A stretch of DNA of 64,000 bases from Closterium sp. NIES-65. Taxonomy: Eukaryota; Streptophyta; Zygnematophyceae; Desmidiales; Closteriaceae. The stretch is taken from assembly GCA_948144175.1 (NCBI GenBank), contig CANXME010002307.1, positions 2,191,001-2,255,000 on the forward strand, written 5' to 3'. A program made the translations under genes and the position numbers. Shown in pieces: positions 37,997 through 63,913 of the stretch. A model generated the notes under the pieces. The model had not been told where the DNA came from, searched no databases, and was given only the letters and a program-made list of their open reading frames with translations. Each line of letters starts with the position of its first letter. The first letter of the stretch is position 1.

Positions 37997-38077
37997 GTAC
38001 TCTAATTCTGTTACGCAAGTTCATATGGCTACCTAGGTGCTATCTACCATTATCCAGCCTTATTAATTGCGTGACAG

Positions 38078-38195
38078 CTGTCAGAAGATGGCAGCCTCCA
38101 CCTCCTGTACCTGCATGCCTCACTTGTTCCTTCTCTTGCCCTTGACTTCCCGGGGGTGATCTGATTGTTGCTTAGGTACTTCTTGTCTCTGCACT
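38078..38195. repeat. Repeat R2 (gypsy F 3' non-coding region)
   Basis: Starts CTGTCAGAAGATGG and ends CTCTGCACT, directly left of the CTTGC duplicated by element E. It is contiguous with the gypsy F coding end at 53955 once E is removed. Confidence 0.75.
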
Positions 38196-38198
38196 TGC

Positions 38199-38323
38199 TG
38201 TCAAACTTATATGCTATAGTCTGTGTAGGCTGTAGTGAGGTAGACTATATGGAGTACAACATTTCTAGGTTTTCCTACTTGTACCCACCTCTTTCTTAGT
38301 TCATTCATTCCTCATTCTTCACA
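38199..38323 (+). repeat. 5' LTR of element E
   Basis: 125 bp, TGTCAAAC...TTCACA. Confidence 0.9.
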
Positions 38324-38534
38324 TGGTATAGAGCAGGTTCCCTCGTGGGAACGCTTCTCAGGGCCCACCACTGAACTCGATTTTTTCTCCTGCCCGAGGC
38401 GCGCCCCGTCGGCCGCCCTCACGTCGCGCTCCCTTAGCGCCCCCTCGTGCCCCACCCTTAGCGGCCCCGTCGCCGCCCTTTGCGGCCCCGTCGCCGCCCC
38501 TCTAGGCCCCTCACGGCCCCTTCGCGGCCCCGTC

Positions 38535-38671
38535 TGTGAGAATTGAACGAGAATGAATGAGAATGAAGGAGGGGTTTCACTAGCAGCAATGAGGATACAT
38601 ATAGCAAACCCTAGATTGGTTGTACTCGCTATAGAGCACCCCACTACAGGCTAGAGAATAACATTCTGACA
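38535..38671 (-). repeat. 3' LTR of element C2
   Basis: 137 bp; on the minus strand starts TGTCAGAATG. Confidence 0.88.
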
Positions 38672-40003: not shown

Positions 40004-40140
40004 TGTGAGAATTGAACGAGAATGAATGAGAATGAAGGAGGGGTTTCACTAGCAGCAATGAGGATACATATAGCAAACCTTAGATGGGTTGTACTCGCTA
40101 TAGAGCACCCCACTACAGGCTAGAGAATAACATTCTGACA
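40004..40140 (-). repeat. 5' LTR of element C2
   Basis: 137 bp; PBS lies immediately left (39987-40003). Confidence 0.88.
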
Positions 40141-40860
40141 CCGTCGCCGCCCCTCTAGGCCCCGTCGCCGCCCCTAGCGGCCCCGTCGCCGCCCCTCTAG
40201 GCCCCTCGCGGCCCCTTCGCGGCCCCGTCGCCGCCCCTAGCGGCCCCGTCGTCGCCCCTCTAGGCCCCTCGCGGCCCCTTCGCGGCCCCGTCGCCGCCCC
40301 TAGCGGCCCCGTCGCCGCACCTCTAGGCCCCTCACAGCCCCTTCGCGGCCCCGTCGCCGCCCCTCTCGGCCCCGTCGCCGCCCCTCTAGGCCCCTCGCGG
40401 CCCCTCTACGGCCTCGTCGCCGCCCCTATCGGCCCCGACGCCGCCCCTAGCGGCCCCGTCGCCGCCCTTCACGGCCAACTCGCCGCCCCTAGCGGCCCCG
40501 TCGCCGCCCTTCGCGGCCCCGTCGCCGCCCCTAGCGGCCCTGTCGCCGCCCTTCGCGACCCCATCGCTGCCCTCTAGCGGCCCCATCGCCACCCTTCTCG
40601 GCCCCTTCAGCCGCCCAGCAGCCGAGCCGCCAAGCCGCCGAGCCGCCCAGCAGCCGAGCCGCCCAGAAGCCGAGCCACCGAGCCGCCGAGCCGCCGAGCC
40701 GCCCAGCAGCCGAGCCGCCCAGCAGCCGAGCCACCGAGCTACCGAGCCGACGAGCCGCCGAGCCGCCGAGCAGCCGAGCCGCCGAGCAGCCGAGCCGCCC
40801 AGCAGCCGAGCCGCCCAGCCCCCGAGCCGCCGAGCCGCCGTCGAGCCGCTACTATTCCTA
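40141..40860 (+). repeat. Leader minisatellite of element E
   Basis: CGGCCCCGTCGCCGCCCCTAG-like units (40141-40600), then a CAGCAGCCGAGCCGCC array (40610-40840). C2 split this array near its start; the same unit type continues at 38450-38534. Confidence 0.78.
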
Positions 40861-40924
40861 CCGACGAGCACCAGCCCTACCCGCCCGGACTGGTGAGAGC
40901 ACTCCCTGCTAGACTACTGCTGTC

Positions 40925-41573
40925 ATGGCTACCCCCAGTGTCCTTACCTTTAATGCTGAGGGTCGTGCTGTTAACTTTGAGGTCTGGGTCGATGACCTCC
41001 AGCTCTTCCTCCAGTGCGATAGGGCAGACGGACTCTCCCTGTTTGATCTCACCTCTGGTGCTTCTCCTGCCCCGCCTGCTACTGCTGACAGCACTGTTCG
41101 CTCACAGTGGGCCACACGCGATGCTGCTGCCCGTCTTGCTGTGCGTTGCCACTTACCGACCGCTGAGCGTGCGCACTTTAGTCAGTACAAGAGTGCTAAG
41201 ACCTTGTACGACGCTGTAGATGCACGCTACTCTTCCCCTGCCACTACTGCTCTTAGCCGCTTCATGCTGCCGTACCTCTTCCCTGACCTTGCTGCCTTTC
41301 CCACAGTCGCTGACCTCATTATGCACCTTCGCACTAGTGACACTCGCTACCGCGCTACGCTTCTTGTTGAGTTCTGTGCCAAGAACCCCCCCCCCCCCCC
41401 CTGTACATCACCCTCTACTACATAGTCACCCGGCTCCCTGACTCCCTTCGCTTAGTCCGGGACCACTTCCTCTCAGTTTGCCCCACCACACTCACCGTTG
41501 ACCTCCTCGAGAAGCGCCTCTTAGCAGTAGAGAAGAGCATAGTCGCTGTAGGAGCCTCTCGTGGTGACCCTCG
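40925..41573 (+). pseudogene. Element E gag, 5' part
   Basis: ATG at 40925 in the conserved MATPSVL context. The gag domain is open to about 41385, where a run of about 17 C residues (family members have 7-8) shifts the frame. The sequence continues recognisably as gag until element I interrupts it at 41574. Confidence 0.85.
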
Positions 41574-41704
41574 TGAGAAAAATGAAACGAGAATGAATGA
41601 ACTATGAATGAACTGAGTACAAGTACTAACCCTAATTGGGTTGTACCCCTTATGGGCTACCCCACTATGGCCTACACAATAAGCACAAGCTATATGTTCT
41701 GACA
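41574..41704 (-). repeat. 3' LTR of element I
   Basis: 131 bp; minus strand TGTCAGAACATATAG...TTTTTCTCA. Confidence 0.9.
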
Positions 41705-41917
41705 CACCCCCATAGGCAAAGTGGGGGAGAACAAGGGGTCACAAGACCAGTCAAGCAAAGCAAAGCAAAGCAAGCTCAGGGTGGATCACAAAGTCACCAC
41801 ACATTCCGAGCACAAGTTCAAGGCCACAAGGCCAGTTCACTTGCAGGAGTACATATATATATAAGGCTAGACAAGCAAGAGCAGGTATATATATATGTAA
41901 CAGTACAAGCAAGGTCA

Positions 41918-44900
41918 AGAGGTGAGCAAGTGAGGCAAGACAGGTACAAGACCCAGCTGGGTGCAGAAGCGCTGATGATCACAAGGCGCAAGTGCCTTGG
42001 TGAAGACATCAGCAGTATTGGCACGTACGCAAGCCGCAACTGACCACGCTGCTGTAGCTCACGAGCAAGGAAGTAGCAAAGAGCAATGTGCTTTGTTCTG
42101 TGCTTCAGTCTCTGCTCTTGACACAAGGCCAGCATGGCCTTGTTGTCTACGTACAGGACTGGAGGAGAACGAGGCGACTCTCCAAGGTCGGTCAGCAGGT
42201 AGGTGAGCCAGCGAAGCTCCTGTGCAGCCATGGCCCCGGCGTAGATCTCAGCCTCACAACTGGAGCCGAGAACAGAAGACGAGCGAGTAGCCCGCCACGA
42301 AACAGAGCCGGAACTAAGGCTGAAGGTGTAACACTATGACGACCGCTGCGTAGCTTGGTCGTCAACCCAAGAAGCGTCCGCGTGCCCAGTGAGGACTACT
42401 GGACACCCCCCTCCAAGCACTAGCCCCATGCCCAACGTACTTCACAAGTAGCGCAACACCCTCTTCGCTGCAGCCATGTGCTCTAGTCGGTGTCTCCCAG
42501 GAGCAACATAGCGTGCGAGAATGCTAAGAGGGTATGCAAGGTCAGGTCGTGTGCAGGTCATCAAGTACATGAGGCAGCCAACAAGCTCTGGATACGGGCC
42601 ACTCGACTCTACACACTCATCCAAAGGCAGAGCTGAGAGCGAGTGGCGAGTAGGCAGAGGAGTGGCCTGAGGCGAGGAGTACGTGAAGCCGAAGCGCTGA
42701 AGGACCTGCTGCACCATGTGTGACTGAGTCAGGGTAATGGTGCGGCGTGCTCTGTCCCGGGTGATCTGCAAGCCAAGGTAGCTGCGCAGTTCACCCAGGT
42801 CTGTGCACGTGTGTCTCTTCTGCAGCTCGGACTTCACGTAGGCGAGTCCAGCAGTGTCGGCTGTGGCAAAGACCAAGTCGTCGACGTACACGAGGATGTA
42901 GAACGGCGGCAGAGAGGTGTCGGTGCGTAGAAACAGCGACGAGTCAGCAGTAGAGGGAGCAAACCCAAGAGCCGCAAGTGTAGTCATCAGTGTGTCGTGC
43001 CACTCGCGCGGTGCCTGACGGAGACCGTAGACTGGATGTCGGAGGCTCCACTGGGTGCCAGGAGGGAAAGTCCCTGTGAAGCCAGGTGGGCGGCGCAGCC
43101 AGATCTCCTCGTGCAGGCTGCCCTGCAAGAAAGCTGTGCTGAAGTCGAGAGAGTGCAGCTCGTAGTCACGGTGAGCAGCAACGTGCAGCAGTACCCGAAG
43201 AGTGGTCATCTTCGGGGTGGGAGAGAAGGTCTGAAAGTAGTCAACTCCCTGCCGCTGACTGAAGCCACGAGCCACGTAACGCGCCTTGAAGACAGGCGGA
43301 GAACCCGGCGGCCCCTTCACCCTGAAGGTCCACATGCCACTGACGATGTTCGCCCCATGAGGGGGGACAGCGTCAACGTAGGTGCCTGTGGACTTCTAGG
43401 AAGCCATATCTGCATCCATAGCTGCCTGCCACTGAGAAGAGTAGGGAGCCTCTATCGCCTCCGCGTAAGAGCGCGGAGTCGGGATGTAAAGTGCATCCAG
43501 GTCTCCCTCAGGGGTAAGCAGGACGGACACGAGATGAGGTGAAGCAGCGTCCAAGCAGTGGAACTCCTCCTGCCTGTCCTTAAGGACGTCCGTGCCAAGG
43601 GCACACTCACCCCTGACGGACGGAGGACAGACGGACTGAGACTCAGCGACAAGACTAGCAGCGTAGTCTAGGCGACAGCGAGCAGCAAAGTCGACGAGCT
43701 CAGCAACTAGGGCAGACGCAGTAGTGGACTCGAAAGAAGGGTCAGTGACGACAGTAGCCAGGAGTCGCGTGACAGGAGGAATGGCAGCACGAAGAGAGTC
43801 AGACTTAGGGTCGGCAAGTGCAGGAAGAGAGGACTCAGGAGGAGAAGGCAAAGGGGCACGCAGAGGAGCAGTGGACGGACGCAGAGACATCCTGTGCGTG
43901 CCAGGGACAGGAGGAGGACGCTGACGCAAACCACGACCACTAGCGCGAGCAGCACGGACAAGCAACGCAGGGCGAGACGCAGGCTCACGACGCTTAGTAA
44001 GACCTCCAGTAGGACCAGTGTAGGGAGAAGGAGCAGGCAAAGGGGAGGTAGGCTGCAACTGTAACTGTGACGGGACTGGGTGTGGACACTCTAAAGAAGG
44101 AGGAGGACGAGTAGAAGGCGGAAGACCAAGAACCTTTTGCAGGAGTGGAACGAAGTACGGTCGAGGCTGCGCGGCGACGCCAGTCACAGCAGGTACAGCA
44201 CCAGTACCCCCAGCAGGAGCACCCGCTCCAGCTGCACCACCAGCAGCGGCAGAACCTCCAGCAGTACCAAGAGTACCCGCAGCAGGACCGCCAGCAGTAG
44301 TCTCAGCTCCAACACCCTCAGCAGCACCAGCTCCAGTCGAACCCGCAGGCCCAGCAGCTCCAGTACTCCCAGTATGAGCACGGCCAGGGTCCGCGACAGC
44401 AGCACCCTCAGTAGCCGAAGAACCTCCAGCACTAGCAGCACGCCTCCAACGTCGTGCAAACCACTCGCGCAGCTCCCGTGGAGAGAGTGGCTCCCGCACA
44501 GACGAAGCACCCGGAGAATCTCCAGTCTCAGCACCCCCAGGCTCAAAACACCCAGGCTCAGCACCCCCAGGCTCAGCACCCCAGGCTCAGCATCCCCAGG
44601 CGCAGCACCCCCAGACGCAGCACCCCCAGGCTCAGCACCCCTAGTCTCAGTACACCCAGGCTCTGCACCCCCAGGCTCAGCACCCCAAGTCGTAGCACCC
44701 CCAGGCTCAGCACCCCCAGGCTCAGCACCCCCAGAGTCAGCACCCCCCGGCTCAGCACCCTCAGCAGCACCAGAGTCACCAGTGACCTCGACAGGCTCGA
44801 CTGCGTCTACATGGGACACACCTGAAGGGGACGGACCCTGAGGGGGGAGGGGGTCTACCGGAGGGGGACCTGGTACAAGGAAGAGCGGCGGCGGGGGGAG

Positions 44901-47856
44901 GGACGGAGTGCGGTAGGGGAAGAGGCGGTAGTAGGGGACCGACTCGTCAAACGTGACGTCCTGGGAGGACAGAACACGGCGAGAGGTGGGGTGGTAGAGC
45001 TGCCACCCAGGCGCGTCAGGGGGGAACCCCAGGAAGACGCAATGAGCAGCACGAGGGGACAGCTTGTCCGCAGACAAGTTGCGGACAAACGCCCGAGTTC
45101 CCCAGACCCGGAACGCTGACGCATCGCCAACCTTCCCCGTCCACAGCAAGGCTGGGGAGGTCTCCGGCCTGGAGACCCTTGGGTGTAGGTTGATCTGATG
45201 CGCCGCGTACCTCACCGCAAACGGCCACAGAAAATGGGGAGCAGCCGCATGCATCATAGACGTACGAGCTACGTCCATGACCATGCCAATGCGGCGCTCA
45301 GCAATCCCATTTTTCTGCGGGGAGTCTGGAAGCGTTAAGGTCTGACGGATTCCTCGTGCGCGACAGTAGGCTCTCAGAAGGCCAGAAGAAAACTCTCCGC
45401 CTCAGTCCGAGTGCAGACGCAGAACAGGAAAGTCCGAGTCAAAGCTCTGCCTGAGCTGGAGACGAGCTGCGCAGATCCAGTCGATCAGCACCTCAGTGAC
45501 ATCACCCTTGCTGCGCAAGGGGAAGACTGCGGTGTAACGCGAGTATTCGTCAACAACGAGGAGGAAGTAGCGCTCGTGACCCGGTCCACGGACGCGGGCT
45601 GGGCCCCACACGTCCATGTGAAGCGTCTGCAACGGGGCCGCTGTCGGAGGAAACTGGGAGGAGTGAGGGGCAGCCCGCTGGCGCCCCTCGACACAGGGGA
45701 CACAGGTAGGGCCAGGGCCCTGAGGAAGGGGAGGAAGGGATCGGGGGAGACCAGGAACAAGAAGACGGGAGGCCATGCCTCTGAGCCGAAGTAGAGAGGG
45801 GTGACCAAGGCGGTGGTGCCAGAGGAGAGTCTCGTGAGACAGGAGACGACACGAATAGGGGGCAGACTCAGGACCAGACCTGGACACTGCAGCAAACACC
45901 TGACCCGACGCAGCTACCCTACCAGATGCAGCAACTGGAGGAGACGGAGTGGTCAGTGTGTACAGGCTCGACCCCGGCTGACGGGTAAACGTGGCCAGGT
46001 GTCGGCCTGTGCTAGCCTCTGTACAGTGCGTCACCCGCTGACGCGCAGGAGTGAACTGGTGTACTCCCCCATCCTGTAGGTCAGCACCACTCACCAGGTT
46101 CGTAGAGAACGAGGGGAGGTAGAGACCAGACAGGGTGCCCGAGGGAGCCGCCGGACATGGGAGGACAGTGGAGAAGTGAGACAGGACAGGACCCCCAGAG
46201 GGGTCAGCCAGAGACACCGCAACAGGCGGACTAAGCGGCGTGAGTGTGGTGCGGTCCCGAAAGAAGGAGCGAGAAGCCCTAGAGTCAAGGGTGAAGGTGA
46301 GGGAGGCCGAAGCCGACGCAGTACCTGAGAGCGCAGACTCACCAGTACCTGAGGGCGCAGACGCACTAGAGCAGCAGCGTCGCAAGCACCTAGGGCAGCA
46401 GCCTCACCATTACCTAGAGCAGCAGTCTCAATGCCCGGATCAGGCGGGAAACACCGGTAACAGTCACCCTCATCACTAATAGACACAGCATACATGGCAG
46501 AAAGGATAGCATCAACATCAAGATCATAGATGGCAACTTCCGCCCTAGACAGCTCGCCCCAGCGAGGGATCTCTGTGGCCTCCGGGAACTGGTGACGCCA
46601 CGCGTCATCAAGCGGCCAAAGCAGCGCTGGGTGGGGTGCGCACCCCCACACTGCTCACCCGCACGGTCGCCGGTGCGCAGGACGTAGGTGCACGCACCAA
46701 AACCCCCACCACGCTGGCGTGCAGTGTACCACTCTCGGAGCTGCTGAGGGGACAGGGTCTCACGATCGCGCTGCTGCTGCTGGCGCGGACCACCACCGGA
46801 GCCACTCCTCTGCGTAGACCCGCGACCAGCTCCACCGCCACCCCCGCCGCCTCCTCCGCCTCCGCCGCCTCCGCTACTACCGCCGCCTCCGCCGCCTCCT
46901 CCACCGCCACCACCTCCGCCACCTCCGCTCCCACCGCCACTGCCGCCGCCGCCTCCACCTCCACTGCCGCCACCGACACCTCTACCCCCACCTCCACTCC
47001 CACCACCACCCCCACTCCCCCCGCCGCCTCCACCTCCACCTCCACCGCCCCCGCTCGCTCCTTCAGCGCCCCTGCCCCCCTTGCCCTTGCTAGAGCGGCG
47101 TCTCCCGCTAGGGGTAGACGCCGCACCGACCGACTCAAGACCAAGGAGGTCGGCCGCAGCAGCAGAGGCAACGGAGGGCAGAAGGGGGGAGGGGGAACAC
47201 CCCTCAAAGACGGGGGTGCGCGGGTCACCACGAGAGGCCCCTACAGCGACTATGCTCTTCTCGGTCGCTAGGAGGGACTTCTCGAGGAGGTCAACAGTGA
47301 GAGTGGTGGGACAGACTGAGAGGAAGTGGTCCCTGACTACGCGAATGGAGTCAGGGAGGCGAGTGACTAAGTAGTAGAGAGTGATGTACATGGGGGTGGG
47401 GTTCTTCGCGCAGAAGTCAGCAGGAAGCGCAGCGCGGTAGCGAGTGTCACTAGTGCGGAGGTGCGTAATGAGGTCAGCTTCTGTGGGAAAGGCAGCAAGG
47501 TCAGGGAAGAGGTACGGTAGCATGAGGCGGCTCAGTGCAGCAGTGGTAGGGGAAGAGTAGTGCGCAACTACAGCGTCGTACAAGGTCTGAGCACTCTTGT
47601 ACTGGTGCGCGCGCTCAGTGGTAGGGAGGTGGCGACGCACAGCAAGACGTGCAGGAGCATCGCGAGTGGCCCACTGTGAGCGAACGGTGGCGTCGGCATC
47701 GGCAGCAGGGGCAGGGGAAGCATCAAAGGTGAGGTCAAAGAGGGAGAGACCGTCTGCCCTATCGTCCTGTAGGAAAAGCTGCAGGTCATCTACCCAGACG
47801 TCAAAGTCAATGGCCCGACCCTCAGCGTCAAAAGTGAGAACACTGGGGGTAGCCAT
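41918..47856 (-). pseudogene. Element I gag-pol
   Basis: ATG at 47856 (MATPSVLTFDAEGR). Gag, glycine tract (about 46830-47060) and Cys/His motif are present. Frameshifts occur near 46620 and 46385. The protease motif reads DSRAS instead of DSGAS (46278-46280). TGA stops the integrase at 45402. A frameshift lies in the linker repeats (about 44590). TAG lies at about 43396 (TGG to TAG) before RT. RT keeps YVDD (about 42880) but is cut by TGA at 42442, and RNase H is frameshifted near 42020. It is functionally dead although the element's LTRs are almost identical. Confidence 0.88.
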
Positions 47857-47929
47857 GACAGGAGTAGACTAGCAGCGCTAACTGTAGAGCAGGGGCAGTG
47901 CGGTGACAGAGGCGCGGCGCTCACTAGAC

Positions 47930-48720
47930 TGGGCGGTTCGGGCAGCTTGGGCGGCTCGGCAGCAACTGCAGCTCGGCGGCACCAGCGGCTCGGCTCCTCA
48001 GCTGCTCAGGCGGCTCGGGCGGCTCGGGCGGCTCGGGCGGCTCGGGCGGCGCGGGCGGCTCGGGCGGCTCGGGCGGCTCCGGCGGTGTAGCGGCGCGGGC
48101 GGCTCGGCTGCGGAGGCGTGCGGGCGGGGCTGTAGGTAGGGCGGCGGGGCTGGGCCGATGGTAAGGCGACGGGGCCGGGGCCAGGCCGTAGGTAGGGCGA
48201 CGGGGCCGGGGCCGGGTCGTAGGTAGGGCGACGGGGCCGGGGCCGGGCCGTAGGTAGGGCGACGGGGCCTGGGCCGTGCCGTAGGTATGGCGACGGGGCC
48301 GGGTCGAAGGTAGGGCGACGGGGCCGGTGCGGAGGTAGGGCTACGGGGCCGGGGCCGGGTCTTAGGTAGGGCGACGGGGCCGGGGCCGGGTCGTAGGTAG
48401 GGCGACGGGGCCGGGTCGACAGTAGGGCGACGGGGCCGGTGCGCAGGTAGGGCGACGGGGCCGGGGCCGGGTCGTAGGTAGGGCAACGGGGCCGGGTCGA
48501 CGGTAGGGCGACGGGGCCGGTGCGCAGGTAGGGCGACGGGGCCGGGGCCGGGCCGCAAGTAGAGCGACGAGGCCGGGGTCGCAAGGGGGGGGCGACAGGG
48601 CCGGGGTCGCAGGTAGGGCGACGGGGCCGGGGCGCAGGTAGGGCGACGGGGCGGGGGCGCAGGTAGGGCGACGGGGCCGAGGCGCAGGAAGGGCGACGGG
48701 GCCGGGGCGCGGGTAGGGAA
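47930..48720 (-). repeat. Leader minisatellite of element I
   Basis: On the plus strand, GGTAGGGCGACGGGGCCGGG units (48130-48720) and a GGCGGCTCGGGC array (47935-48090); on the sense strand these are the CGGCCCCGTCGCCC and GAGCCGCC modules seen in the other leaders. Confidence 0.78.
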
Positions 48721-48823
48721 GGGGAGCGCGACTCGGGGTGCGCGCGCTGCGGGCAGAAAAATAAATTATTTCGAGTTGGTGGGCCCTAGGCACAGCTCCC
48801 ACGAGGGAACCTGCTCGATACCA

Positions 48824-48954
48824 TGAGAAAATTGAAACGAGAATGAATGAACTATGAATGAACTGAGTACAAGTACTAACCCTAATTGGGTTGTACCCCT
48901 TATGGGCTACCCCACTATGGCCTACACAATAAGCACAAGCTATATGTTCTGACA
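48824..48954 (-). repeat. 5' LTR of element I
   Basis: 131 bp; one A/T difference from the other LTR, near its inner end. Confidence 0.9.
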
Positions 48955-48959
48955 CCTGG

Positions 48960-51900
48960 CACCCCCGTCTTTGAGGGGTGTTCCCCCTCCCCCCTCTTGC
49001 CCTCTGTTGCATCTGCTGCTGCGGCCAACCTCGTTGGCTTCGAGTCGGTCGGCGCTGCGTTTGCCCCTAGCGGGAGACGCCGCACCGACAAGGGCAAGGG
49101 GGGCAAGGGTGCTGGAGGGGCTGGCGGGGGCGGTGGAGGTATTGGAGGCGGCAGTGGAGGGGGTGGGGGTGGTGGTGGGAGTGGTGGCGGGGGTGGAGGT
49201 GTCGGTGGCAGCAGTGGAGGCGGAGGAGGCGGCGGCGGTGGCGGAGGGAGCGGAGGCGGCGGTGGTGGCGGAGGCGGTGGAGGTGGCGGAGGCGGCGGCG
49301 GCAGCGGTGGAGCTGGTCGCAGCTCTACGCAGATGAGTGGTTCCGGTGGTGGTCCGCGCTAGCAGCAGTAGCGCAGTCGTGAGACCCCGTCCCCCCAGCA
49401 GCTTCGTGAGTGGTACGCTGGGCGTCAACGAGGTGGGGGTACTGGTCCCTGCACCTACGTCCTCCGTACCGGCGACCGCGCTGGTGAGAAGTGCGGGGGC
49501 CCGCACTCCACCCAGCGCTGCTTCGGCTGCCTGACGGACGCGTGGCGTCACCAGTTCCCTGACGCCACTGAGATCCCTCGCTAGGGAGAGCTGTCTACGG
49601 CGGGGGTTGCTATCTTTGATCCTGATTATGATGCTATTCTTGCTGCCATGTATGCTGTGTCTACTAGTGATGAGGGTGACTGTTACCTGTGTGTTTCGCC
49701 TGACCCGGGCATTGAGGCTGCTACTCTAGGTGCTGGTGAGGCTGCTGCTCTAGGTGCTAGTGCGTCTGCTGCCCCAAGTGCTGGTGAGTCTGCTCTCTCA
49801 GGTACCACGTCGGCTCACGCCTTACACACCTTCACCCTTGACTCGGGTGCTTCTCGCTCCTTCTTTCGAGACCGCACCACGCTTACGCCGCTTAGTCGGC
49901 CGGTTGCGGTCTCCCTGGCGGACCCCTGTGGGGGTCCTGTCCTTGCTCGCTTCTCCACTGTCTTACCGTGTCCGGCAGCCCCCTCTGGCACCCTGTCAGG
50001 TCTCTACCTCCCCTCGTTCTCTACGAACTTGGTGAGTGGAGCTGATCTACAGGATAGGTGGGTTGACCAGTTCACTCCTGCGAGTCAGCGGGTGACCCAC
50101 TGTACGTGTGCTCGGACGGGCCGACACTTGGCCACGTTTACCCGTCGGCCGGGGTCGAACCTGTACACACTGACTATTGAGTCTCCTCCGGTTGCTGAGT
50201 CTGGTCAGGTAGCTACGTCGAGTCAGGTGTTTTCTGCAGCGTCCAGGTCTGGTCGTGAGTCTGCTCCCTGCTCGTGTCATCTCCTGTCCCACCAGACTCT
50301 CCTTTGGCACCACCGCCTTGGTCACCCCTCCCTGCCTCGTCTCCGAGGCATGGCCTCCCGTGTCCTTGTCTCTGGTCTCCCCCAGTCCCTCCCTCCCCTA
50401 CCTCTGGGGCCTGCCCCTACCTGCCTTCCCTGCGTCGAGGGGCGGCAGCGCGCCGCCCCTCACTCCTCCGAGTTTCCTCCGACAGAGGCTCCGCTGCAGA
50501 CTCTTCACATGGACGTGTGGGGCCCCGCCGGCGTCCGTGGCCAGGGTCACGAGCGTTACTTCATGTTGGTGGTTGACGACTATTCGCATTACACCACGGT
50601 ATTCCCCTTGCGCAGCAAGGGTGACGTCACTGAGGTGTTGATCGACTGGATCCGCGCAGCTCGTCTCCAACTCAGAGAGAGTTTCGGCTCGGACTTTCCT
50701 GTTCTGCGTCTGCACTCTGACAGAGGCGGGGAGTTTTCCTCTGCCCGGCCGGGAGCCTTCTGTCGTGCACAGGGCATCCGCCAGACCTTCACGCTTCCGG
50801 CCTCTCCACAGCAAAATGGGATTGCTAAGCGCCGCATTGGCATGGTCATGGACGTCGCTCGTACGTCCATGATCCATGCGGCTGCCCCCCATTTTCTGTG
50901 GCCGTTTGCGGTTCAGTACGCAGCGCATCAGCTCAACCTTCAGCCCTGTGTCTCCTTGCTAGAGACCTCCCCCACCTTGCGGTGGACGGGGAAGGTTGGC
51001 GATGCGTCTGCGTTTCGGGTCTGGGGATCTCGGGCGTTTGTCCGCGACTTGTCTGCGGACAAGCTGTCCCCCCGTGCTGTTCCCTGCGTCTTCCTTGGCT
51101 TCCCCCCTGACGCGCCTGGATGGCAGTGTTACCACCCCACCTCGCGCCGTGTTCTGTCCTCCCAGGACGTCACCTTTGACGATTCGGTGCCTTACTACCG
51201 TCTCTTCCCCTACCGCACTGCGCCCCTCCCTCCATCGCCACTTTTCCTTGCGCCAGGTCCTCCCCCGGTAGACCCCCTCCCCCCTCAGGGTACTGCTGGA
51301 GCTGCTGGCAGTACTGGAGCTGCCGGTCCTGCTGGAGTAGGTGCTGCTGGAGCTGCTAGAGCTCGAGCTGCTGGGGGTGTTGGCGCTGGTGCTTTTGAGG
51401 GTGCTGGAGTTGGCGCTGCTGGAGCTGGAGGTGCTGCTGGCGCTGGTGCTGCCGCTGGGGGTACTGGTGCTGTCCGTGCTTTTTCTGGAGGTGCTGCACG
51501 GCCGTGGCCATACTTCGTTCCGCTCCTTGAGCAGGTTCTTGGTCGCCCGCCTTCTACTGGTCGTGCTCCTCCCTTAGAGTGTCCACAGCCTGTCCAGTCG
51601 CAGTCACAGTTACAGCCCGCCTCCCCCCTACCTGCTCCTTCTCCCTACGCTGGTCCTACTGGAGGTCTTGCTGAGCGTCGTGAGCCTGCGTCTTGTCCTG
51701 CGTCGCCTGTTCATGCTGCTCGCACTAGTAGTCGTGCTCCGCGTCCGCGTCCTCCTGCAGACCCAGGCACACACCATATGGCACTACGTCCTTTCTCTGC
51801 TCCTCTGCGTGTCCCGTTGCCGTCTCCTCCAGAGTCCTCTCTTCCTGTTCTTGCTGACCCAGAGTCTGACTCTCTTCGTGCTGCCAGTCCTACTGTCACG

Positions 51901-53627
51901 CGTCTCCTGGCTACTGTTGTCACTCACCCTTCCTTTGAGTCCACTGCTACGCCGGCCCTAGCTGCTGAGCTTGTCGACTTTGCTGCTCGCTCTCGTCTGG
52001 ACTACACTACTAGTCTTGTTGCTGAGTCTGAGTCTTTCTGTCCTCTGTTCGTCGGGGGTGGGTGTGCTCTTAGCCCGGACGTCCTTGAGGACAGGCAGGA
52101 GGAGTTCCAGTGTTTTGCTGCTGCTTTGCCTCATCTCGTGTCCATGCTGATTGCCCCTGAGGGAGACCCAGATGCACCAGACATCCCGACTCCTCGATCG
52201 TACGCTGAGGCGATCGAGGGTCCCTACTCCTCTCAGTGGCAGGCAGCCATGGACGCAGAGATGGCTTCATGGAAGTCCACAGGCACCTACGTCGACGAGG
52301 TTCCCCCATCTGGGGCGAACATCGTCAGTGGCATGTGGATTTTTCAGGGCGAACATCGTCAGTGGCATCTCTTGACTTCAGCACAGCTTTCCTGCAGGGC
52401 AGCCTTCACGAGGAGATCTGGCTGCGCCGCCCACCTGGCTTCACTGGGTCGTTTCCTCCTGGTACCCAGTGGAGCCTCCGGCGGCTAGTCTACGGTCTCC
52501 GCCAGGCGCCCCGTGAGTGGCACGACACACTTAGGACTACACTTTCGGCTCTTGAGTTTGCTCCTTCTACAGCCGACCCGTCGCTGTTTCTGCGCACCGA
52601 CACCTTTTTGCCGCCGTTCTACATCCTCGTGTACGTCGACGACTTGGTCTTTGCCACAGCTGACGCTGCTGGACTTGCCCACGTGAAGTCCGAGCTGCAG
52701 AAGAGACACACGTGCACAGACCTGGGTGAACTGCGCAGCTACCTTGGCTTGCAGATCACCCGGGACAGAGCACAGCGCACCATTACCCTGACTCAGTCAC
52801 ACATGGTGCAGCAGGTCCTTCAGCGCTTCGACTTCACGTACTCCTCGCCTCAGGCCACTCCTCTGTCTACTCGCCATTCGCTCTCCGCTCTGCCTTCGGA
52901 TGAGTCCGTAGAGCCGAGTGGCCCGTACCTAGAGCTTGTTGGCTGCCTCATGTACCTAATGACCTGCACACGACCTGACCTTGCATACCCTCTTAGCATC
53001 TTGGCACGCTATGTTGCTCCTGGGAGACACCGACTAGAGCACATGGCTGCAGCGAAGAGGGTGTTGCGCTACTTGTGCAGTACGTTGGGCATGCCCTCAC
53101 AGGTGCTACTTGGGCTTGGAGGGCGACGTCGAGTGGTCCTCACAGGTCACGCAGACACTTCTTGGGCTGACGACCAGGCTACGCAGCGGTCGTCACATGG
53201 TTACACCTTCAGCCTTGGTTCCGGCTCTATTTCGTGGCGGTTTACCCGCTCGTCTTCTGTTCTCGGCTCCAGCTGTGAGGCCGAGATCTACGCGGGGGCC
53301 ATGGCTGCACATGAGCTACGCTGGCTCACCTACTTGCTGACTGACCTAGGAGAGCCGCCTCGTTCTCCTCCAGTTCTGTACGTAGACAACAAGGCCATGC
53401 TGGCCTTGTGTCGGGAGCACAGACTGGAGCATAGAACGAAGCATATTGCTCTTCGCTACTTCCTTGCTCGTGAGCTGCAGCAGCGTGGTCAGCTGCGCCT
53501 TGCTTATGTGGCCTCTGAGGCCAACACTGCTGATATCTTTACCAAGGCACTTCAGCCTGGTGATCATCAGCGCTTCTGTACAATGCTAGGTCTTGTGCCT
53601 ACTTGGCCTCACTTGCTCATTTCTTGA
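48960..53627 (+). pseudogene. Element E gag (3' part) and pol
   Basis: Resumes the gag sequence after element I (glycine tract 49115-49320; Cys/His motif about 49450-49520). TAG stops at 49360, 49369 and 49582, then open from 49648 through protease (DSGAS) and integrase. In integrase the catalytic glutamate motif NGIAER reads NGIAKR (about 50825), so it should be inactive. The GGAEPGG repeats of the integrase-RT linker are missing. At 52335-52370 about 170 bp of RT are deleted and the junction carries a 21-bp duplicated filler. The rest, with YVDD and RNase H, is open to 53627. Confidence 0.88.
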
Positions 53628-53824
53628 CCTTGCTTGTACTGTGATCTTTCTATACCTGCACTTGCGTGTTTACCTTCGTATATGATCTTGCATGTGAACT
53701 GGCCTTGTGGCCTTGCTCTTGTGCTCGGACTGTGTGGTGACGTTGTGATCCACCCTGAGCTTGCTTTGCTTTGCTTGACTGGTTTTGTGACCTCTTGTTC
53801 TCCCCCACTTTGCCTATGGGGGTG

Positions 53825-53949
53825 TGTCAAACTTATATGCTATAGTCTGTGTAGGCTGTAGTGGGGTAGACTATATGGGGTACAACATTTCTAGGTTTTC
53901 CTACTTGTACCCACCTCTTTCCTAGTTCATTCATTCCTCATTCTTCACA
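53825..53949 (+). repeat. 3' LTR of element E
   Basis: 125 bp, three differences from the 5' LTR. Preceded by the polypurine tract ATGGGGGTG. Confidence 0.9.
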
Positions 53950-53967
53950 CTTGCCCCCTCCTTGGCC

Positions 53968-55197
53968 CCTCCTAGAGGTGTCGATGGATGCCCTAGAGAC
54001 CCTGCCCCCTCCTTTGTCAGGTTGCGCTTGTCGTCTTCGCTTGGCCGCGGCTACGTTGGTAATATGATCCCGCCTCTCTTCCCCCTTCTCGCTGACTAGC
54101 ACGATCACTCCCGAGTCTTTCACCTCCTTCACGCGCCATCGTACGGTTGTCAATCCGATGTCTAGCAGGTCCTTCTTTGCCTGCCTAAGATAGACTTCTC
54201 CTCCCTCTCGGACCTCCTTGTCCCTCTGCTTCGGTTGCCCTAGTCCCCTCTGGCGGTACCTCTGCACGTCCCTCAGTTGAGCTACGTGCAGGCTCTCCAA
54301 TGCAGCTGGCAGCAGTTCTCGCAGGTATTTTGCCCGTGCCTCTGCCACGGCCACCCACTTTTCCTCTATCCCGGTGGTGACTTTGTCACTCAGTAGTTTG
54401 GGTGCGTCAATGGGCAAGATAGGCTCTCGGCCGAGCAGCAAGTAGTAAGGTGACAGGTCTCGCAAGGCCGCCTGCTTGCTGAATTGGTATCCCGCAACCA
54501 CCCATGGTAACCTCAAATCCCAGTCCCTCTTATACTGCTCCTCATACGCTCTCAGACCCTTCTTCAGGGTCTGGACGAACCACTTCGTCAGACCATCGCT
54601 TTGTGGGTGATACCTGGATGTCTTCCGATGGGTAATCCTCGTGTTCTTGAGGAGCTGATCGAACACTCCTTGGAACTCAGTTCCTTGATCGGTTAGAACC
54701 TCTCCGCATGCGCTGAACCGCGTGAGGACCTGCTCCTCGAATGCCTCTGCTATCTTAGCCGAGTTCTTGCTCGGCAACGCTTTCACCTCCACCCATTTGA
54801 TCCTGTGTTCGATCATAATGAGTATGTACCGCTTGCCTCGCCTGCTCAGCGGCATCTCTCCCGCCAAGTCCAAGGACCATCGGAACCCCAGCCCTCGGAT
54901 CGGCAATGACTGGAACTCCCTTCTTCCGCGGTCTAACTCCGCTCGGTTTCTGCTGCACAGCTCGCACCCTTGCACCCACTCCCGCACTTGCTTCCGCATC
55001 CCCGCCCACCACCAGTTTGTGCCCACTAGCTGCTAAGTCCGGAGCTCGCCGTAGTACCCCAGCTGGCGGTGAACACGGGCGATGATGGCCTCCCGCTGGG
55101 ACGGCTCTGGCACTACCTTCCATCCGTCCTTGGTGTTCACTTGCAGCTGGTCTTGGTACCACCTGTAGTGAGCCCCTCTGGCGCGCACTCGTTCCGC
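53968..55197 (-). pseudogene. Gypsy F integrase
   Basis: Zinc-binding HHCC region (55000-55130; CELCSRNRA), interrupted by a stop at about 55035. Core: WSLDLAGEM, VLTDQGTEFQG, then SDGLTKWFVQTLKK where the catalytic Glu is replaced by Lys (54583-54585). The C-terminal part has a basic tail and a chromodomain-less region (VRWRVKEVKDSGVIVL). Loss of the third DDE residue makes it inactive. The stop lies near the E insertion point. Confidence 0.85.
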
Positions 55198-56578
55198 CTA
55201 CCCCTTCTTCCCCGTCTTCCCTTGCACCCAATCCAGCACCTCTCGATCGGCCCACACGTCTTCTGGCCCCTTCTCTCTCCCCTTCTTCGCTCCCTCCCTA
55301 TCAATCTGCCGCGCCATCGCCACTAGACAGGCCGTCTGTGACGCGGGTGCCGGGTTCCGCGACAGCCCGTCAACGTGCTGCATGCTCTTGCCGGTTCGGT
55401 GCTTAATGAAGAAATCGTACTCTTGTAACCTCATAGCCCACCTAGCGTTCCTTCCGGTGAGCGACTGATTAGTCATCAGCCATGTCAGTGGCTGGTGATC
55501 AGTAACCAAGGTAAAAGGGTGGCCCTGCAGATAGACTCTAATATGCGTAATAGCCCACACCGCTACCAATCCCTCCCCTTCATACGAGCTGTAGTTAGCC
55601 TCAGAAGGGTTACAGCTCCGACTCGCGAACGCTACCACCCGCTCCTCCCCTCGATGCTCTTGGCACAGGACAGCTCCCATCCCGGAGCTGCTCCAATCCG
55701 TGTAAAGCGTGAACGGCAGCGTGTCGAGCGCCTTCCCCTCCTCTTCTCCCCACTGCCACTGCTGCTCCTCCTTCAGCAGGCGGTTCAGGACAGCCGCGGT
55801 CTTGCTGAAGTTGGGCACGAACCGCCTGTAATATCCCAGGAACCCCAGGGCAGCTCTGAGCGTCATTCGGTTGGTGGGTGTTGGTACTCGATCGAGGACT
55901 TCCACCTTCGCCTCCTGCACTCCCAGCCGCTCGTCTCTGACCTCGAATCCGAGGTACTGCACGGTCTTGTTCCCGAATTTACACTTCTTTGGGTGGCACG
56001 TTAGGCCCGCCCCCTTGATTGCTTCCAGCGTTGCCCTGACGTCCTGCACGTGCTGCTCCTCGGAGGCGCTAAAAATGATGACGTCATCGATGTAGCAGGC
56101 CGCCGCGGGCACTCCTCGCAGTACGCTATAACACGACTAGTGCATTCCTGGTGCCAAAGGGCATGACCCTCCACTCGTACAGTCCGTCCGAGCCATGGAA
56201 TGCCGTCTTCCTGCAATCCTCGACCTTAATCGGTATCTGGTTGAACCCCTGCCGTAAGTCAAGCGTGGAGAAGACCACTGCCCCCTGCAGCTTGTCGAAG
56301 ATCTCCTCCGCGGACTGCATGGGATACCTGTCAGGCACCGTGACTTTGTTAAGCCCGCGGTAATCTCCGCACATTCTCTTCGCGGACACGTCTCCTGTGA
56401 TATCGGTCCTAGACGCCACCACGGTCGCTGCCGCGTACTCGCTTTCTGACCGTTGTATCAGCCCCGCTTCCAGCAGCTCGGCGCACTTTGCGGCACAGAT
56501 CTCCACGTCGCCCGGGCTCATCCTTCTCTTCCGATGGTACACGAGGACCTCACTGGTGAGCTGAATACGCATCTCCTA
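55198..56578 (-). pseudogene. Gypsy F reverse transcriptase and RNase H
   Basis: Starts after a TAG at 56576-56578. RT motifs: MCGDYRGLNKVTVPDRYP, STLDLRQGFNQIPI, WRVMPFGTRNA, then a frameshift with a small deletion at about 56120, then CYIDDVIIFS (YIDD retained) and LGFLGYYRRFVPNFS. A further deletion removes part of the RT-RNase H connection before FTLYTDWSSSGMGAVL (about 55715). RNase H continues with VVAFASRSCNPSEANYSSYE and TDHQPLTWL. Confidence 0.85.
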
Positions 56579-58276
56579 AACCGTACACCTCCCCAGTTCC
56601 TTCAGCGTAAAGGCGAACGTCTCCTTGTGCTGCTCCAGAACCTCCCGCAGGTCAGCCGCTACCTGTGCCCCCAACCCCGGACCTATCTCCCATGGGGTGC
56701 CTTCGTTGGCACTTCCTCCCTTCGTGCCTTCGGCCGCCCCTCCCTCTCCGATCTCGGCCGCGTCTCTCGCCTCCAGGGCCATGAAAGCACATCCTTCTCG
56801 TATACGCTCCTCTCTCCTGGCTTCGATCTGCGCCAGCTGGTGCCTCCTCCACGCAGCTTCCCTCCCCTCTCGGTAATACTCGCTCCCCTCTAGCTCTCTC
56901 TGCACCTCCTTCGTCTTCAGGTGCATGCGGATGGTCTCCAAAATCCAGGTCATGACGTTCAGGTCCATCGCCCTCCCAAGGGCCACCCTCCGCTGCGCCT
57001 CTGACACCTCGGGGTATGCCGTGGCTCCCCACCTGTGCCCCCTGTCCAGCTCTCGCTCGTTCGCACTGGGCTCCTCCCACTTCCGAGTGCGGGAGTCGTA
57101 TACCATTCCCGGGCCCGGCCCTACTCCTTCCATCACAAACCCCCTCGCATCGGCGAACGAGACCAGCGTTGGCCACGCCCTCCTTGGCTCGCCTGGCACG
57201 TTGCAAGGGTACTGGGTAGGGTGATCTTCTACGGTCATCGGCGAACGAGACCAGCGAGGGTGTGGCCTCTGCATCTGCGCCAAGGCATGCCTCAGGTAGG
57301 CCTCTGAAACTCCATTCTGCCAGTACCGGCGCGACCGATGGGCTCTAGACCCCAGCTGCGCGGCGTCAATGGGCACGCCCCTCCCCAGCTCCTCTGTTAT
57401 GTCTGCATACGCGCTGTGCACCAGCTCTCGGCGGTCGTCCGCCATGTCAGCGTTTTCCAGTATGAAGACGACTTCCCGCTCCCGCTTCTGGATCATTCTC
57501 AGCACCCGAGTCAGATCTCTGAAGGATGCCCCCCTTGGGTCCCCCATGCCTCGGCCCTCTCCCGCGCAAGAGTATCCTTGGCACTCCCATCCAGCCACGA
57601 CGAGGTCAATCGGCCCCCAAGCTTCCAGCTGCTGCTCCGTAATGTCCCTCACGTCGTGAACAGTCACCTCTTCCTCCAGCAGGATCGCCGTGATCAACAT
57701 CTGCTGGGGATACTCTTCCAGCAGCTTCAAGGCGTAGTTGCGCGCCATCTTCCTCACGACCGGGTCCTTCTCCACGTGCAGCCATCTCCCCACGAAGCAC
57801 CCCGCTTTCAGCGCCGCCGCTAGCCCAGTCCCGATGCCTCCGTAGAGCTCCAGGATGCACAGCGCGCCCTCCAGACACCAGGTACGGCATACCCTCTCTT
57901 TTAGGTCTATCGTCCGGCGCCCTCCTTCGTGCAGCTCGATCCGCCGCTGTCCCTCCTCGGCGTACTCTTGCCACGTCCAGTCATCCAACTCGTGCGTCAG
58001 ATCCGTCTCCTCCGCTCGGTACGCTGCTCGCGGTTCTTGTTTCACGAACTGTACCGGGAGGGTCCCCACTGAGCTCTCAAGATCCCAGTATTGCACTTGG
58101 AAAAGTACTTTTTCTTGCCACGTCCAAATGGTTGCCCCTACTTTATACAGAAGCTCCATCCCGACCAGGACGTCGTAGTCTTCTGACTGCGAGATCCCGC
58201 ACCTCAGGCGCAGACAGCACTCCTTCTCGGTTCCCGGCAGCAAAGTAATCTCCACGGGCAGCTTCGTGCTCAGCAT
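56579..58276 (-). CDS. C5-cytosine DNA methyltransferase domain within gypsy F pol
   Basis: A 566-codon open segment. Residues 1-80 look like the protease C-terminal part (YDVLVGMELL). Residues about 139-450 form a DNA (cytosine-5) methyltransferase: motif I ILELYGGIGTGLAA (141-154), motif II VEKDP, motif IV VVAGWECQGYS with candidate catalytic Cys232 (ECQ rather than PCQ), motif VI FILENADMAD (271-280), motif VIII AQLGSRAHRSRRYW (306-319), and motif X-like ALGRAMDLNVMTWIL (432-446). Residues about 520-566 enter the RT N-terminus (LREVLEQHKETFAFTLKEL). The methyltransferase is unbroken although the rest of the element is not. Methyltransferases captured by LTR retrotransposons have been reported in charophytes and dinoflagellates. 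The likely role is methylating element or host DNA. Listed as CDS because the frame is open; expression is doubtful. Confidence 0.85.
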
Positions 58277-58625
58277 CCACTTAGGCGCCCCCCCTTTCAG
58301 CGGTCATCAGCAGGATGCCGCGCTCCACTTGGCGCTCTGGGCGGTCCAGCTACAGCTGCTTCGCCAGCCCCTTTCCAATAAGAACGTTGTGGGCTCCAGT
58401 GTCGATGATCGCCTGAGACACCGGCAGGCCTCCCACCGTCAAGCTTCCCTTTTCAGCTATCAGCACGGAGGCTTGGCACACCAACCGCTCATTCGGGTGA
58501 CGCCTCATATCGCTACTGGTGCCGCTCTCCCTTCTTAGCGGCGCCCTCTCCCTCCGGCTCGTAGTGCTCGATTCCCGCCAAATCTCGGACCGGGAGCGTA
58601 GGTACGCCATGAACCCGCACTCCAC
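58277..58625 (-). pseudogene. Gypsy F aspartic protease fragment
   Basis: In a frame different from gag and from the downstream ORF, the sequence shows SQAIIDTGAHNVLIGKGL (about 58380-58435), a DTGA retropepsin motif. A stop at about 58350 and frameshifts on both sides separate it from its neighbours; the second half of the protease continues in the ORF starting at 58276. Confidence 0.75.
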
Positions 58626-60010
58626 ACCAACTCTTCCTCGGACAGCTCTTCCTCCGCTCTTTCCTCGATGGTTAGCATGGCCCGATTCTCGGGTTTAGCC
58701 AGCTTCTCGAGCTGGCCCTGCAGCCTCCGGATCTCTGCTTGCAATTCCTCTTTCGAGGGGTCTCCCACTCGGGCCTTCTTCTGATAGCAGTCCGCGGCAC
58801 GATGACCCTTCCTCCCGCAATGGTCGCAGATCGGAGCCGTCGGGCAGTCTCGCTTGAGATGACCCTGCTCCCCACACGAGTGACACCTCCGGGGGTCGCC
58901 TCGGTCGTGGGGGTCCTTCTCGAACTCTGGCAATGCCGCTGCAGCCCAGCCCGGCTTCGTCCGGGGGCGTTGGTCCCCGTCGTCGAGCTCCAGTAGCCGT
59001 TGGGCGTGCTCAGTACGTTTCGCTACGCCGTACACCTCCTTCAGGGTCACGTCTGTCCCTATGCCATACACGGCCGTCCTCATTACGGGCCTGAGGTCAT
59101 CGTCGAGCCCTCGTACGAACTTCTGCACCAATAGTCGCTCATCTCGCTTCTCCAGGTCTTCCGCCAGCTCTTGTAAGCGGTTATAGTAGGCCAGGAGCGA
59201 CTCCTCTTTACGTCGTCGAAAGTCCCGGAATTCCTCCAAGCGAGCATTCGTCTGCCCAACGAACTCGCGTTTTAGTAACTGAATGAACCTCGCCGTCGGA
59301 TTCTCGATGACGCCTTGGTCCAGCTCGTCTAGCACCTCCCCGCGCACCATCCGGTAAAACGTCTCATCTTCTCCCGCGAGCGTCGCCACCATCTTTCTGA
59401 AGAACTCTTACAGGTCGAAGCCGTCGCGCTCCCAGTAGTACTGCGCCGTCTCGAGCTGCATCACATAGTTCTTTAGAGTCGGCCCGACCCCTCGGATTCC
59501 AGTATACCGATCCGCCACCTCGACCTTCAGCAACGACGCGGAATTCCATCGGCGGGAGAGCGGAGGGTCAGGGTCTTCTCCTCGTACTCCCATCGCTGTC
59601 CGGCTCGGCACTAGTTCTCGGTTTCCTCGAGGGCTGAATCGCTCTTCCTTCACGTCTTGGTTCTACGGCCTAGGCGGAGAAGGGGCTCGCCCCGTCATCC
59701 CGGGCATCGTTAGCGGAAACGCACGTGATTCTCTAGCCCTCCACCGTTCGCGCGCTTCCCGCGCCCATCTCGAGTCAGGCGGGACAGTCCCCGGGTCCGA
59801 TGCAGCGGTTGTCTTCCCTCCGTCTGCCGTCCGTTCGCGCTGGTGTGGGGTGCAATAGGCGGGCGAGTCGGTCGCTCTAGGAGATAGTCCGCTCTTCTCC
59901 TCTGGTTTAATGCTACTAGCATGGGCGCGCCAACTAGGCGTCGCTTGAGACGTCTCCATGGTTTTGCGCACATAGCTATAGCCAGATCTCAGCTCTACAT
60001 TATCGTTCAT
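58535..60010 (-). pseudogene. Gypsy F gag with two CCHC zinc knuckles
   Basis: One reading frame from the ATG at 60010 to 58535, broken by TAG at 59663-59665 and TAA at 59408-59410. The capsid-like Retrotrans_gag region (about 58980-59390; RLEEFRDFRRRKEESLLAYY) is followed by two knuckles, CHSCGEQGHLKRDC and CDHCGRKGHRAADC (about 58790-58890). These bind RNA in particle assembly. Ends with a frameshift into the protease frame. Confidence 0.85.
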
Positions 60011-60023: not shown

Positions 60024-60336
60024 TGTAGAAAAATGAGCTAGGGTTTCCTGAGTCCACACGAGTAACGCGGCTGACTGCCTGCTTGGAGTGGCTCCTCGGT
60101 AGCAAAACGACTTTTGAGTCATTAGCTAACATGTGAGGAAAGAAACAAGCAAGCAGGCCTTCCATGCCTGCGGTTTCCCTAAGTAGGACCACGCTTACCG
60201 TTGCTCTTGGTCCGTTGCACTTAGCCACAGTATTCCCGCTAGGCTCGGCGTCGCTCCTGTTTCTGGCATCGCGTATGCTTTGGCGGGTGTTCCCCGCCGC
60301 ATCCTCTCTACTGGGCTCACTCATTAATTTCCTACA
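60024..60336 (-). repeat. Right (5') LTR of gypsy F
   Basis: 313 bp; on the minus strand starts TGTAGGAAATTAATGAG and ends TTTTTCTACA. Copy at 37722-37996. It abuts sequence that leads into gypsy G's 5' end, so one of the two elements may have inserted into the other's LTR. An alternative is that 60024-60666 is one longer LTR belonging to G. Confidence 0.6.
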
Positions 60337-60849
60337 GTACAGTAAGGAAAATTCCTTTTCCTTACTTCGCGTCCCCGCTCAGCGCGTACACCACTGTAGC
60401 ACCACAGTCGGCACCGTTACCACTCGCATCCCTCGCATCGACAATCCTCCCGCCACCTTCGCACATCGCACCCCAACCTCACGGCTCAGCGGGTAACCCG
60501 CGCTCCAGGCCTCCGCTTTGACATTTCCCCAAACCTCAGTCCCAGGCCCGTCGCGCGACAACCACAGTCCATTACCGTTACCACTGTAGTTTCGCTATAT
60601 ATTCTTCGCTCGTTGTACTCTTGCTTCAATAGTGCAATTCTCGCTCACTCAATTGCACTCGTAACACTTGGTATTCAGAGCCTACGATCTCTTCTCGGAC
60701 CGTACCCACACTTTCGCTTCCCCACTATCTCAATTTTTTGGGGGGGGTAGACGTCTCTCAGCGACACATCACCGCCACTCGTAGTGCTCTCTCGTAAGCA
60801 CGCACGGCCACGACAGAGGCCCTCGCTGAGCTTGCCCGACACCCCCACC

Positions 60850-63840: not shown

Positions 63841-63913
63841 GTCTGGTGAGAGCAGCGCTTCTATCACTGCACTGCCCCTGTCCTACAGATGGTACTACTA
63901 GTCTACTGTTGTC

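What the first reader, a model, noticed from the sequence alone, without database searches (positions are those of the whole stretch)
56579..58276. DNA cytosine methyltransferase embedded between protease and RT of a gypsy retrotransposon
Seen: motifs I, II, IV, VI, VIII and X-like of a C5-MTase in order, in one open frame on the minus strand, between retropepsin and RT segments. The frame is intact while the flanking gag, RT, RNase H and integrase are riddled with stops, frameshifts and a lost DDE residue. The motif IV box is ECQ, not the usual PCQ, but keeps the cysteine. Known: capture of DNMTs by LTR and DIRS retrotransposons has been described in charophytes and dinoflagellates (de Mendoza and colleagues, 2018, from memory). 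Inference: the enzyme may let the element methylate its own cDNA. The unbroken frame could reflect co-option, recent death of the other parts, or chance.
Basis: partly seen in the sequence, partly recalled or inferred. Interest (0 to 1): 0.92.

Follow-up and report, generated by a model that had tools for sequence, protein, structure and literature searches.

The report
DNMT3-carrying gypsy retrotransposon in a green alga
A jumping gene of an alga carries its own DNA-methylating enzyme; the copy found here is a decayed relic, but relatives keep the enzyme under selection, with an unusual change right beside its active-site cysteine.

Summary
The frame at 56576-58303 (minus strand) contains a canonical-order C5 cytosine methyltransferase of the DNMT3 type, between retropepsin and reverse transcriptase of a Ty3/gypsy element. 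The host is inferred to be Closterium, a streptophyte alga. The kind is known: KnitGypsy-Dnmt3 of Klebsormidium (PMC5890265). The window copy is a relic: a nested copia splits it, gag, protease, RT and integrase are broken, and the open MTase frame itself lacks 27 nt. Substitution counts give no sign that the MTase alone was preserved, so co-option is not supported. The family looks alive: 12 of 76 scored copies have a stop-free match in a frame of 2000 aa or more, and the MTase has median Ka/Ks 0.06, like RT. New here: motif IV is ECQ, not PCQ, in 27 of 28 readable Closterium proteins and 43 of 45 own-genome loci inspected, fixed under purifying selection. Related MTases occur in liverwort, Haematococcus and metagenome proteins in two architectures; P, E and S interchange at least seven times on the tree. 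Function (methylating its own cDNA or daughter copies) is inferred, not shown.

The parts
60026..60340 (-). repeat A1 of the element (its first ~76 nt are missing)
   Evidence: aligned to A2: 10 substitutions in 280 nt plus one 35-nt gap
58535..59407 (-). gag with CCHC knuckles (broken)
   Evidence: Pfam zf-CCHC and Retrotrans_gag; lesions
58350..58694 (-). retropepsin, N-terminal part in another frame
   Evidence: Pfam Asp_protease_2, weak, below its cut-off
57893..58303 (-). C-terminal half of protease and tether, in frame with the MTase
   Evidence: alignment to gag-PR-MT relatives
56915..57892 (-). DNMT3-type C5 methyltransferase domain, motif IV WECQ, 27 nt missing after motif VIII
57581..57586 (-). 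motif IV Glu-Cys codons (Pro replaced by Glu; cysteine kept)
   Evidence: family survey
56576..56914 (-). linker to RT, ends in a TAG stop where relatives read on
55198..56575 (-). reverse transcriptase and RNase H (14-nt deletion in RT)
   Evidence: Pfam RVT_1, RT_RNaseH
53938..55032 (-). integrase (stops, frameshifts, DDE glutamate lost)
   Evidence: Pfam rve, Integrase_H2C2
53950..53963 (-). polypurine tract at the end of the body
38199..53949 (+). nested copia insertion splitting the element; LTRs 122/125 identical, target duplication CTTGC
38079..38195 (-). repeat B1
   Evidence: 8 substitutions in 117 nt to B2
38073..38082 (.). palindrome GACAGCTGTC at the B1|A2 junction
   Evidence: same in L031 and L032
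37721..38076 (-). repeat A2
37605..37721 (-). repeat B2, ends in GACA

Best explanation
This is a dead copy of a living family of Ty3/gypsy elements in Closterium whose polyprotein runs gag-CCHC-protease-DNMT3-type methyltransferase-RT-RNase H-integrase. Shown: domain order, DNMT3 fold (predicted model), purifying selection on the MTase in little-damaged copies, A-body-B-A-B repeats, 4-bp target duplications, and decay of the window copy. Inferred: the MTase is packed with the cDNA next to RT and methylates cytosines of the element's new cDNA, or of the daughter insertion, so that incoming DNA carries a host-like mark. The Glu in motif IV is tolerated or tuned in an enzyme that still works.
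Against: No activity is shown. KnitGypsy-Dnmt3 gave no methylation in yeast, which its authors call inconclusive. The family has no marked CpG depletion (o/e 0.82-0.92 for three element bodies or ORFs against 0.79 for the whole window, 0.70 for the copia and 1.11 for another gypsy there), so no footprint of heavy self-methylation. Proline before the catalytic cysteine is otherwise near-universal in C5-MTases (recalled), and its loss could weaken the enzyme.
Confidence: 0.6

Rival explanations
1. The MTase was co-opted: the window copy's frame was kept by selection for the host while the rest of the element decayed.
For: No stop or frameshift in 1.73 kb; 1 of 85 columns that are invariant or have one exception departed, about 4 expected if neutral at 2.3% (own arithmetic). 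With 14 lesions at random on 6 kb this one segment is spared in 0.8% of draws, with 8 in 6.8%.
Against: A lesion-free gap of that size anywhere is common (55% with 8 lesions, 13% with 14); expected stops only 1.8. N:S 13:9 in the MTase is not lower than 39:48 elsewhere. RNase H is spared too. A 27-nt loss hits a stretch kept by 17 of 21 other rows. L004 has an open MTase stretch without the catalytic cysteine.
Confidence: 0.05
2. The ECQ MTase no longer methylates DNA; it is kept as a nucleic-acid or SAM-binding part of the polyprotein, or acts on RNA.
For: Loss of the motif IV proline in 28 of 28 readable Closterium proteins, 27 with E and one with S; P, E and S interchange at least 7 times on the tree.
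Against: Cysteine and glutamine of motif IV are invariant in the 22-row alignment A1; motif VI glutamate and motif VIII are nearly invariant; Ka/Ks 0.06.
Confidence: 0.2
3. The MTase acts outward: it methylates host or competitor element DNA, silencing rivals or damping the element's own copy number.
For: Side effects on host methylation and a slowing of transposition are raised for this kind of element in PMC5890265 (section 11).
Against: No methylome of this alga was available; nothing here points outward.
Confidence: 0.12
4. Chance motif resemblance, no methyltransferase.
For: None found.
Confidence: 0.005

Closest known systems
KnitGypsy-Dnmt3 (Klebsormidium nitens), PMC5890265
   Same: DNMT3-type MTase inside the Pol ORF of a gypsy element, DIRS-like order of repeats with gypsy domains, MTase under purifying selection (Ka/Ks < 0.2)
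   Different: Here in Closterium, with Pro replaced by Glu in motif IV; exact MTase position and motif letters of the Klebsormidium element could not be compared (figure and supplement not held)
SymbioDIRS-Dnmt3 (Symbiodinium), PMC5890265
   Same: DNMT3 in the Pol polyprotein with RT; A-body-B-A-B repeats
   Different: Tyrosine recombinase elements; here a DDE integrase and 4-bp target duplications
DNMT3A/DNMT3B catalytic domain (PDB 6u91, 6w89)
   Same: Fold and motif order, motif X match
   Different: No PWWP or ADD domain reported by Pfam; PCN in DNMT3 (alignment), ECQ here; about 22% identity
Masc1/RID (fungi), PMC6709928 (passages)
   Same: A C5-MTase family with a fixed change in a catalytic triad (EQT for ENV)
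   Different: There the change is in motif VI, here in motif IV; host genes, not transposon genes

Membership tests
DNMT3-type C5 methyltransferase | canonical (not rearranged) motif order with motif X at the C-terminal end | tested here: met
DNMT3-type C5 methyltransferase | closer to DNMT3 than to DRM, DNMT2 or bacterial MTases | tested here: met
DNMT3-type C5 methyltransferase | Pro-Cys in motif IV | tested here: not met
   Glu-Cys in the window; relatives in the same tree carry P, E or S. The cysteine is kept
Ty3/gypsy retrotransposon | gag, PR, RT, RNase H, DDE integrase in that order | tested here: met
   longer polyproteins
Ty3/gypsy retrotransposon | plain LTRs at both ends | tested here: not met
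   A-body-B-A-B instead, 3 of 3 elements examined, window copy with part of A1 missing
KnitGypsy-Dnmt3 kind | DNMT3 in gypsy Pol plus DIRS-like repeats | tested here: met
   definition from the paper's text and legend
KnitGypsy-Dnmt3 kind | common descent with the Klebsormidium element | not tested
   no protein named Klebsormidium among the hits
DIRS elements | tyrosine recombinase instead of DDE integrase | tested here: not met
   rve integrase, 4-bp target duplications

The most novel reading that the evidence does not exclude
Retroelement DNMT3s form a green-lineage-wide radiation in two gypsy architectures (PR-MT-RT in streptophytes; RT-RH-MT-IN-PHD including Haematococcus) in which the near-invariant proline of the catalytic PC motif has been replaced by Glu repeatedly, and fixed in Closterium, as an adaptation to an unusual substrate such as nascent or circular retro-cDNA.
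Probability: 0.25. Interest if true: 0.8.

Novelty: new variant of a known kind. Interest (0 to 1): 0.62.

Why it matters
It turns a curiosity known from Klebsormidium and dinoflagellates into a wider, selected gene of green-lineage retrotransposons, and offers natural replicates of a change beside the catalytic cysteine of C5-MTases. That makes two open questions testable: what a self-encoded DNMT does for a retrotransposon whose host uses methylation to silence it, and how much of the PC loop chemistry is really required.

Tried and rejected
Co-option of the window copy: rejected on N:S counts, the 27-nt loss and lesion simulations, though the lesion-free frame plus few changes at conserved columns leave a weak hint for it.

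CpG depletion as a footprint of self-methylation: none marked. Viral origin: 61 IMG/VR loci matched, 61 of 61 with WPCQ in the pattern found, matches partial and at 25-46% identity; not followed further.

Single origin of ECQ: 27 E rows held as one clade are rejected (AU p 1e-83); the test assumes that the group was named before the tree was seen, which is not quite so here. An RT-only tree did not resolve the two architectures; RT+RNase H+IN did, 14 against 6 rows, support 100/100.

Host DNMT genes in the own genome: the PF00145 search scored 123 of 901 candidates; 15 of 15 loci fetched from its top were ECQ copies. No conclusion on host DNMT3 or MET1. Counts of ECQ against PCQ over the whole genome and a DNMT1-RFD search did not complete.

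Plain repeat search of 52-62.5 kb found nothing, because the 3' repeats lie beyond the nested copia.

Full report

HOST. Of 35 proteins found with the window ORF, 26 are named Closterium. The window lies in an 874-Mb assembly without a name; the contig length 769,901 is shared by C1639 and by the contig of P0011, named Closterium sp. NIES-65, so that strain is my guess, from this one coincidence.

THE ELEMENT. Upstream are gag/CCHC and protease, downstream RT, RNase H and integrase. In L031 and L032 all of these are one frame of about 2120 aa. These two elements have the repeats A-body-B-A-B: L031 A 371/371 and B 206/206 identical, L032 A 99.7% and B 98.5%; ends TGTC...GACA; target duplications ACTT and CTTC (ends and target duplications read by eye). 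A polypurine stretch lies just before B1, and the B1|A2 junction is the palindrome GACAGCTGTC. So a copy made by ordinary LTR-type reverse transcription would have 'BA' as its LTR, and the integrated form looks like a two-LTR circle opened at the palindrome inside one LTR; this mechanism is my inference. The paper on Klebsormidium states a DIRS-like repeat order for KnitGypsy-Dnmt3.

The window copy has the same plan but is split by a copia element (38199-53949, LTRs 122/125 identical, target duplication CTTGC). Its B1, A2 and B2 lie at 38195-37605, its partial A1 at 60340-60026. A1/A2 differ at 10 of 280 sites plus one 35-nt gap, B1/B2 at 8 of 117, about 2.3% per lineage since insertion.

IS THE OPEN FRAME MEANINGFUL? 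Against L032's frame: gag 2 stops and 3 frameshift gaps, PR 1 and 1, MTase and linker 0, RT 1 stop and a 14-nt deletion, RNase H 0, IN 4 stops and 4 gaps (some gaps may be alignment noise). At 2.3%, 1.8 stops are expected in the frame (P of none 0.17); a clean stretch this long somewhere is found in 55% of draws with 8 lesions and 13% with 14, while this particular stretch is spared in 6.8% and 0.8%. Changes specific to the window, polarised with L002 as sister and seven outgroup rows: MTase 13 N: 9 S, all other segments together 39 N: 48 S. In favour of preservation, only 1 of 85 nearly invariant Closterium columns has changed, where about 4 would be expected (own arithmetic). Against it, the frame lacks 9 residues after motif VIII that 17 of the 21 other rows of A1 keep (939 vs 966 nt in L002). 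P0002, the row nearest to the window in A1, lacks them too, so the loss may be older than the insertion, or P0002 may be a spliced gene model. Also, L004 keeps a stop-free MTase stretch with Arg in place of the catalytic cysteine. I conclude recent death and chance, not co-option.

IS THE FAMILY FUNCTIONAL? The own-genome search scored 76 of 1995 candidates: 32 have no stop in the matched stretch and 12 of these lie in a frame of 2000 aa or more. Of the 30 loci fetched, 17 had at most one stop in 4.7 kb; six representatives gave 15 pairs. Median Ka/Ks: tether 0.035 (12 pairs), MTase 0.061 (14), RT 0.064 (15), gag/PR 0.098 (12), linker 0.141 (15); pairs with L028 are near saturation for Ks, and pairs without a computable Ks were left out. 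The MTase is thus as constrained as the RT.

MOTIF IV. The letter before the catalytic cysteine was readable in 28 of 38 Closterium-named proteins: E in 27, S in 1 (P0013) (recounted). In the own genome 28 of 30 loci of the first search show WECQ; L004 shows WERQ and in L005 the stretch could not be read. All 15 loci fetched from the top of the PF00145 search show it; by their coordinates the two sets do not overlap. So 43 of 45. Outside Closterium, in the first two searches 60 of 81 proteins were readable: 55 P, 4 E, 1 S; in the third, 14 of 17: 9 E, 5 P. In the aligned column of 91 rows: 51 P, 36 E, 2 S, 2 gaps (one of the P rows is the DNMT3A outgroup). On the careful tree (64 rows; DNMT3A and four poor or long rows dropped) at least 7 changes are needed, and one clade of all E rows is rejected. 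I recall no other C5-MTase family with Glu there; the one search on motif IV and proline returned 3 papers, of which I read passages of one (PMC6709928), which describes a change in motif VI of fungal RID.

DISTRIBUTION. Two architectures appear among longer proteins: CCHC-(protease)-MT-RT-RH-IN (Closterium; P0116 and P0118, unnamed; protease itself was matched only in P0111, P0117 and P0128, and by Pfam in P0048), and RT-RH-MT-IN with a C-terminal PHD finger (Haematococcus lacustris P0130 and unnamed or metagenome proteins; PHD pattern in 17 of 21, some of the rest being truncated). Marchantia polymorpha P0058 and Calypogeia fissa P0047 end after the MTase; Pfam finds only DNA_methylase in them, protease-like sequence upstream is my reading by eye, and their RT was not seen. 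RT+RNase H+IN separates 14 rows of the second kind from 6 of the first with support 100/100; the MTase tree groups the second kind at 99/95, together with four proteins of unknown architecture. One capture or two cannot be decided without host DNMT3 sequences.

KNOWN AND NEW. DNMT3 in a charophyte gypsy with DIRS-like repeats is published (PMC5890265: outline, passages, sections 9 and 11 read). A 2025 survey of eukaryotic DNMTs (PMC12344493, passages) notes DNMT3 members embedded in retrotransposons, 'LTR Copia and DIRS', citing the same report. PMC6338049, on accessory domains of retrotransposons, was seen only in a listing. A search for Closterium with retrotransposon and DNA methyltransferase found 0 papers in the held library; searches with Marchantia (9 papers listed) and with green alga and polyprotein (12 of 14 listed) showed none that describes the Closterium elements by title or start of abstract, and of those papers I read passages of PMC12344493 and PMC6453930 and, as said, PMC5890265. 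So the kind is known; what is new, as far as these searches go, is the Closterium family, the fixed ECQ under purifying selection, and the second architecture.

HOW IT PROBABLY WORKS. The MTase is translated inside Gag-Pol, next to RT, and is thus packed with the cDNA it could methylate; SymbioDIRS-Dnmt3 enzymes do methylate CG de novo in yeast, while the KnitGypsy enzyme gave no result. No CpG loss marks the family. Methylation of cDNA or daughter copies remains inference.

Noticed in passing
L031 and L032; window 38073-38082: Integrated copies look like two-LTR circles opened at the palindrome GACAGCTGTC inside a 'BA' LTR (polypurine tract before B1, 4-bp target duplications): a DDE-integrase gypsy with permuted ends.
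   Followed up: partly
P0130 (Haematococcus lacustris), P0120-P0136: A second architecture RT-RNase H-DNMT-integrase, mostly with a C-terminal PHD finger, in a chlorophyte and in unnamed or metagenome proteins.
   Followed up: partly
P0058 (MARPO_0008s0049), P0047: Marchantia and Calypogeia proteins with a retroelement-type DNMT3, annotated as hypothetical or unnamed proteins; may be mistaken for host DNMT3.
   Followed up: no
L004 (C233): A copy with a stop-free MTase stretch in which the catalytic cysteine is replaced by arginine (WERQ).
   Followed up: partly
window 38199-53949: A copia element (LTRs 125 nt) inserted in the DNMT-gypsy, 15.7 kb long, probably through further nested insertions.
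   Followed up: partly
window 57148-57168 and 57236-57256: A 21-nt direct repeat inside the MTase frame lies close to the place of the 27-nt loss; may reflect template switching.
   Followed up: no
L002 and L003: Two loci on different contigs 98.7% identical over 4.7 kb of mostly element sequence; recent relatives, segmental duplicates or haplotigs.
   Followed up: no
window 63000-63850: GC-rich low-complexity stretch coding runs of proline-, arginine- or alanine-rich peptides in several frames, beside another gypsy.
   Followed up: no
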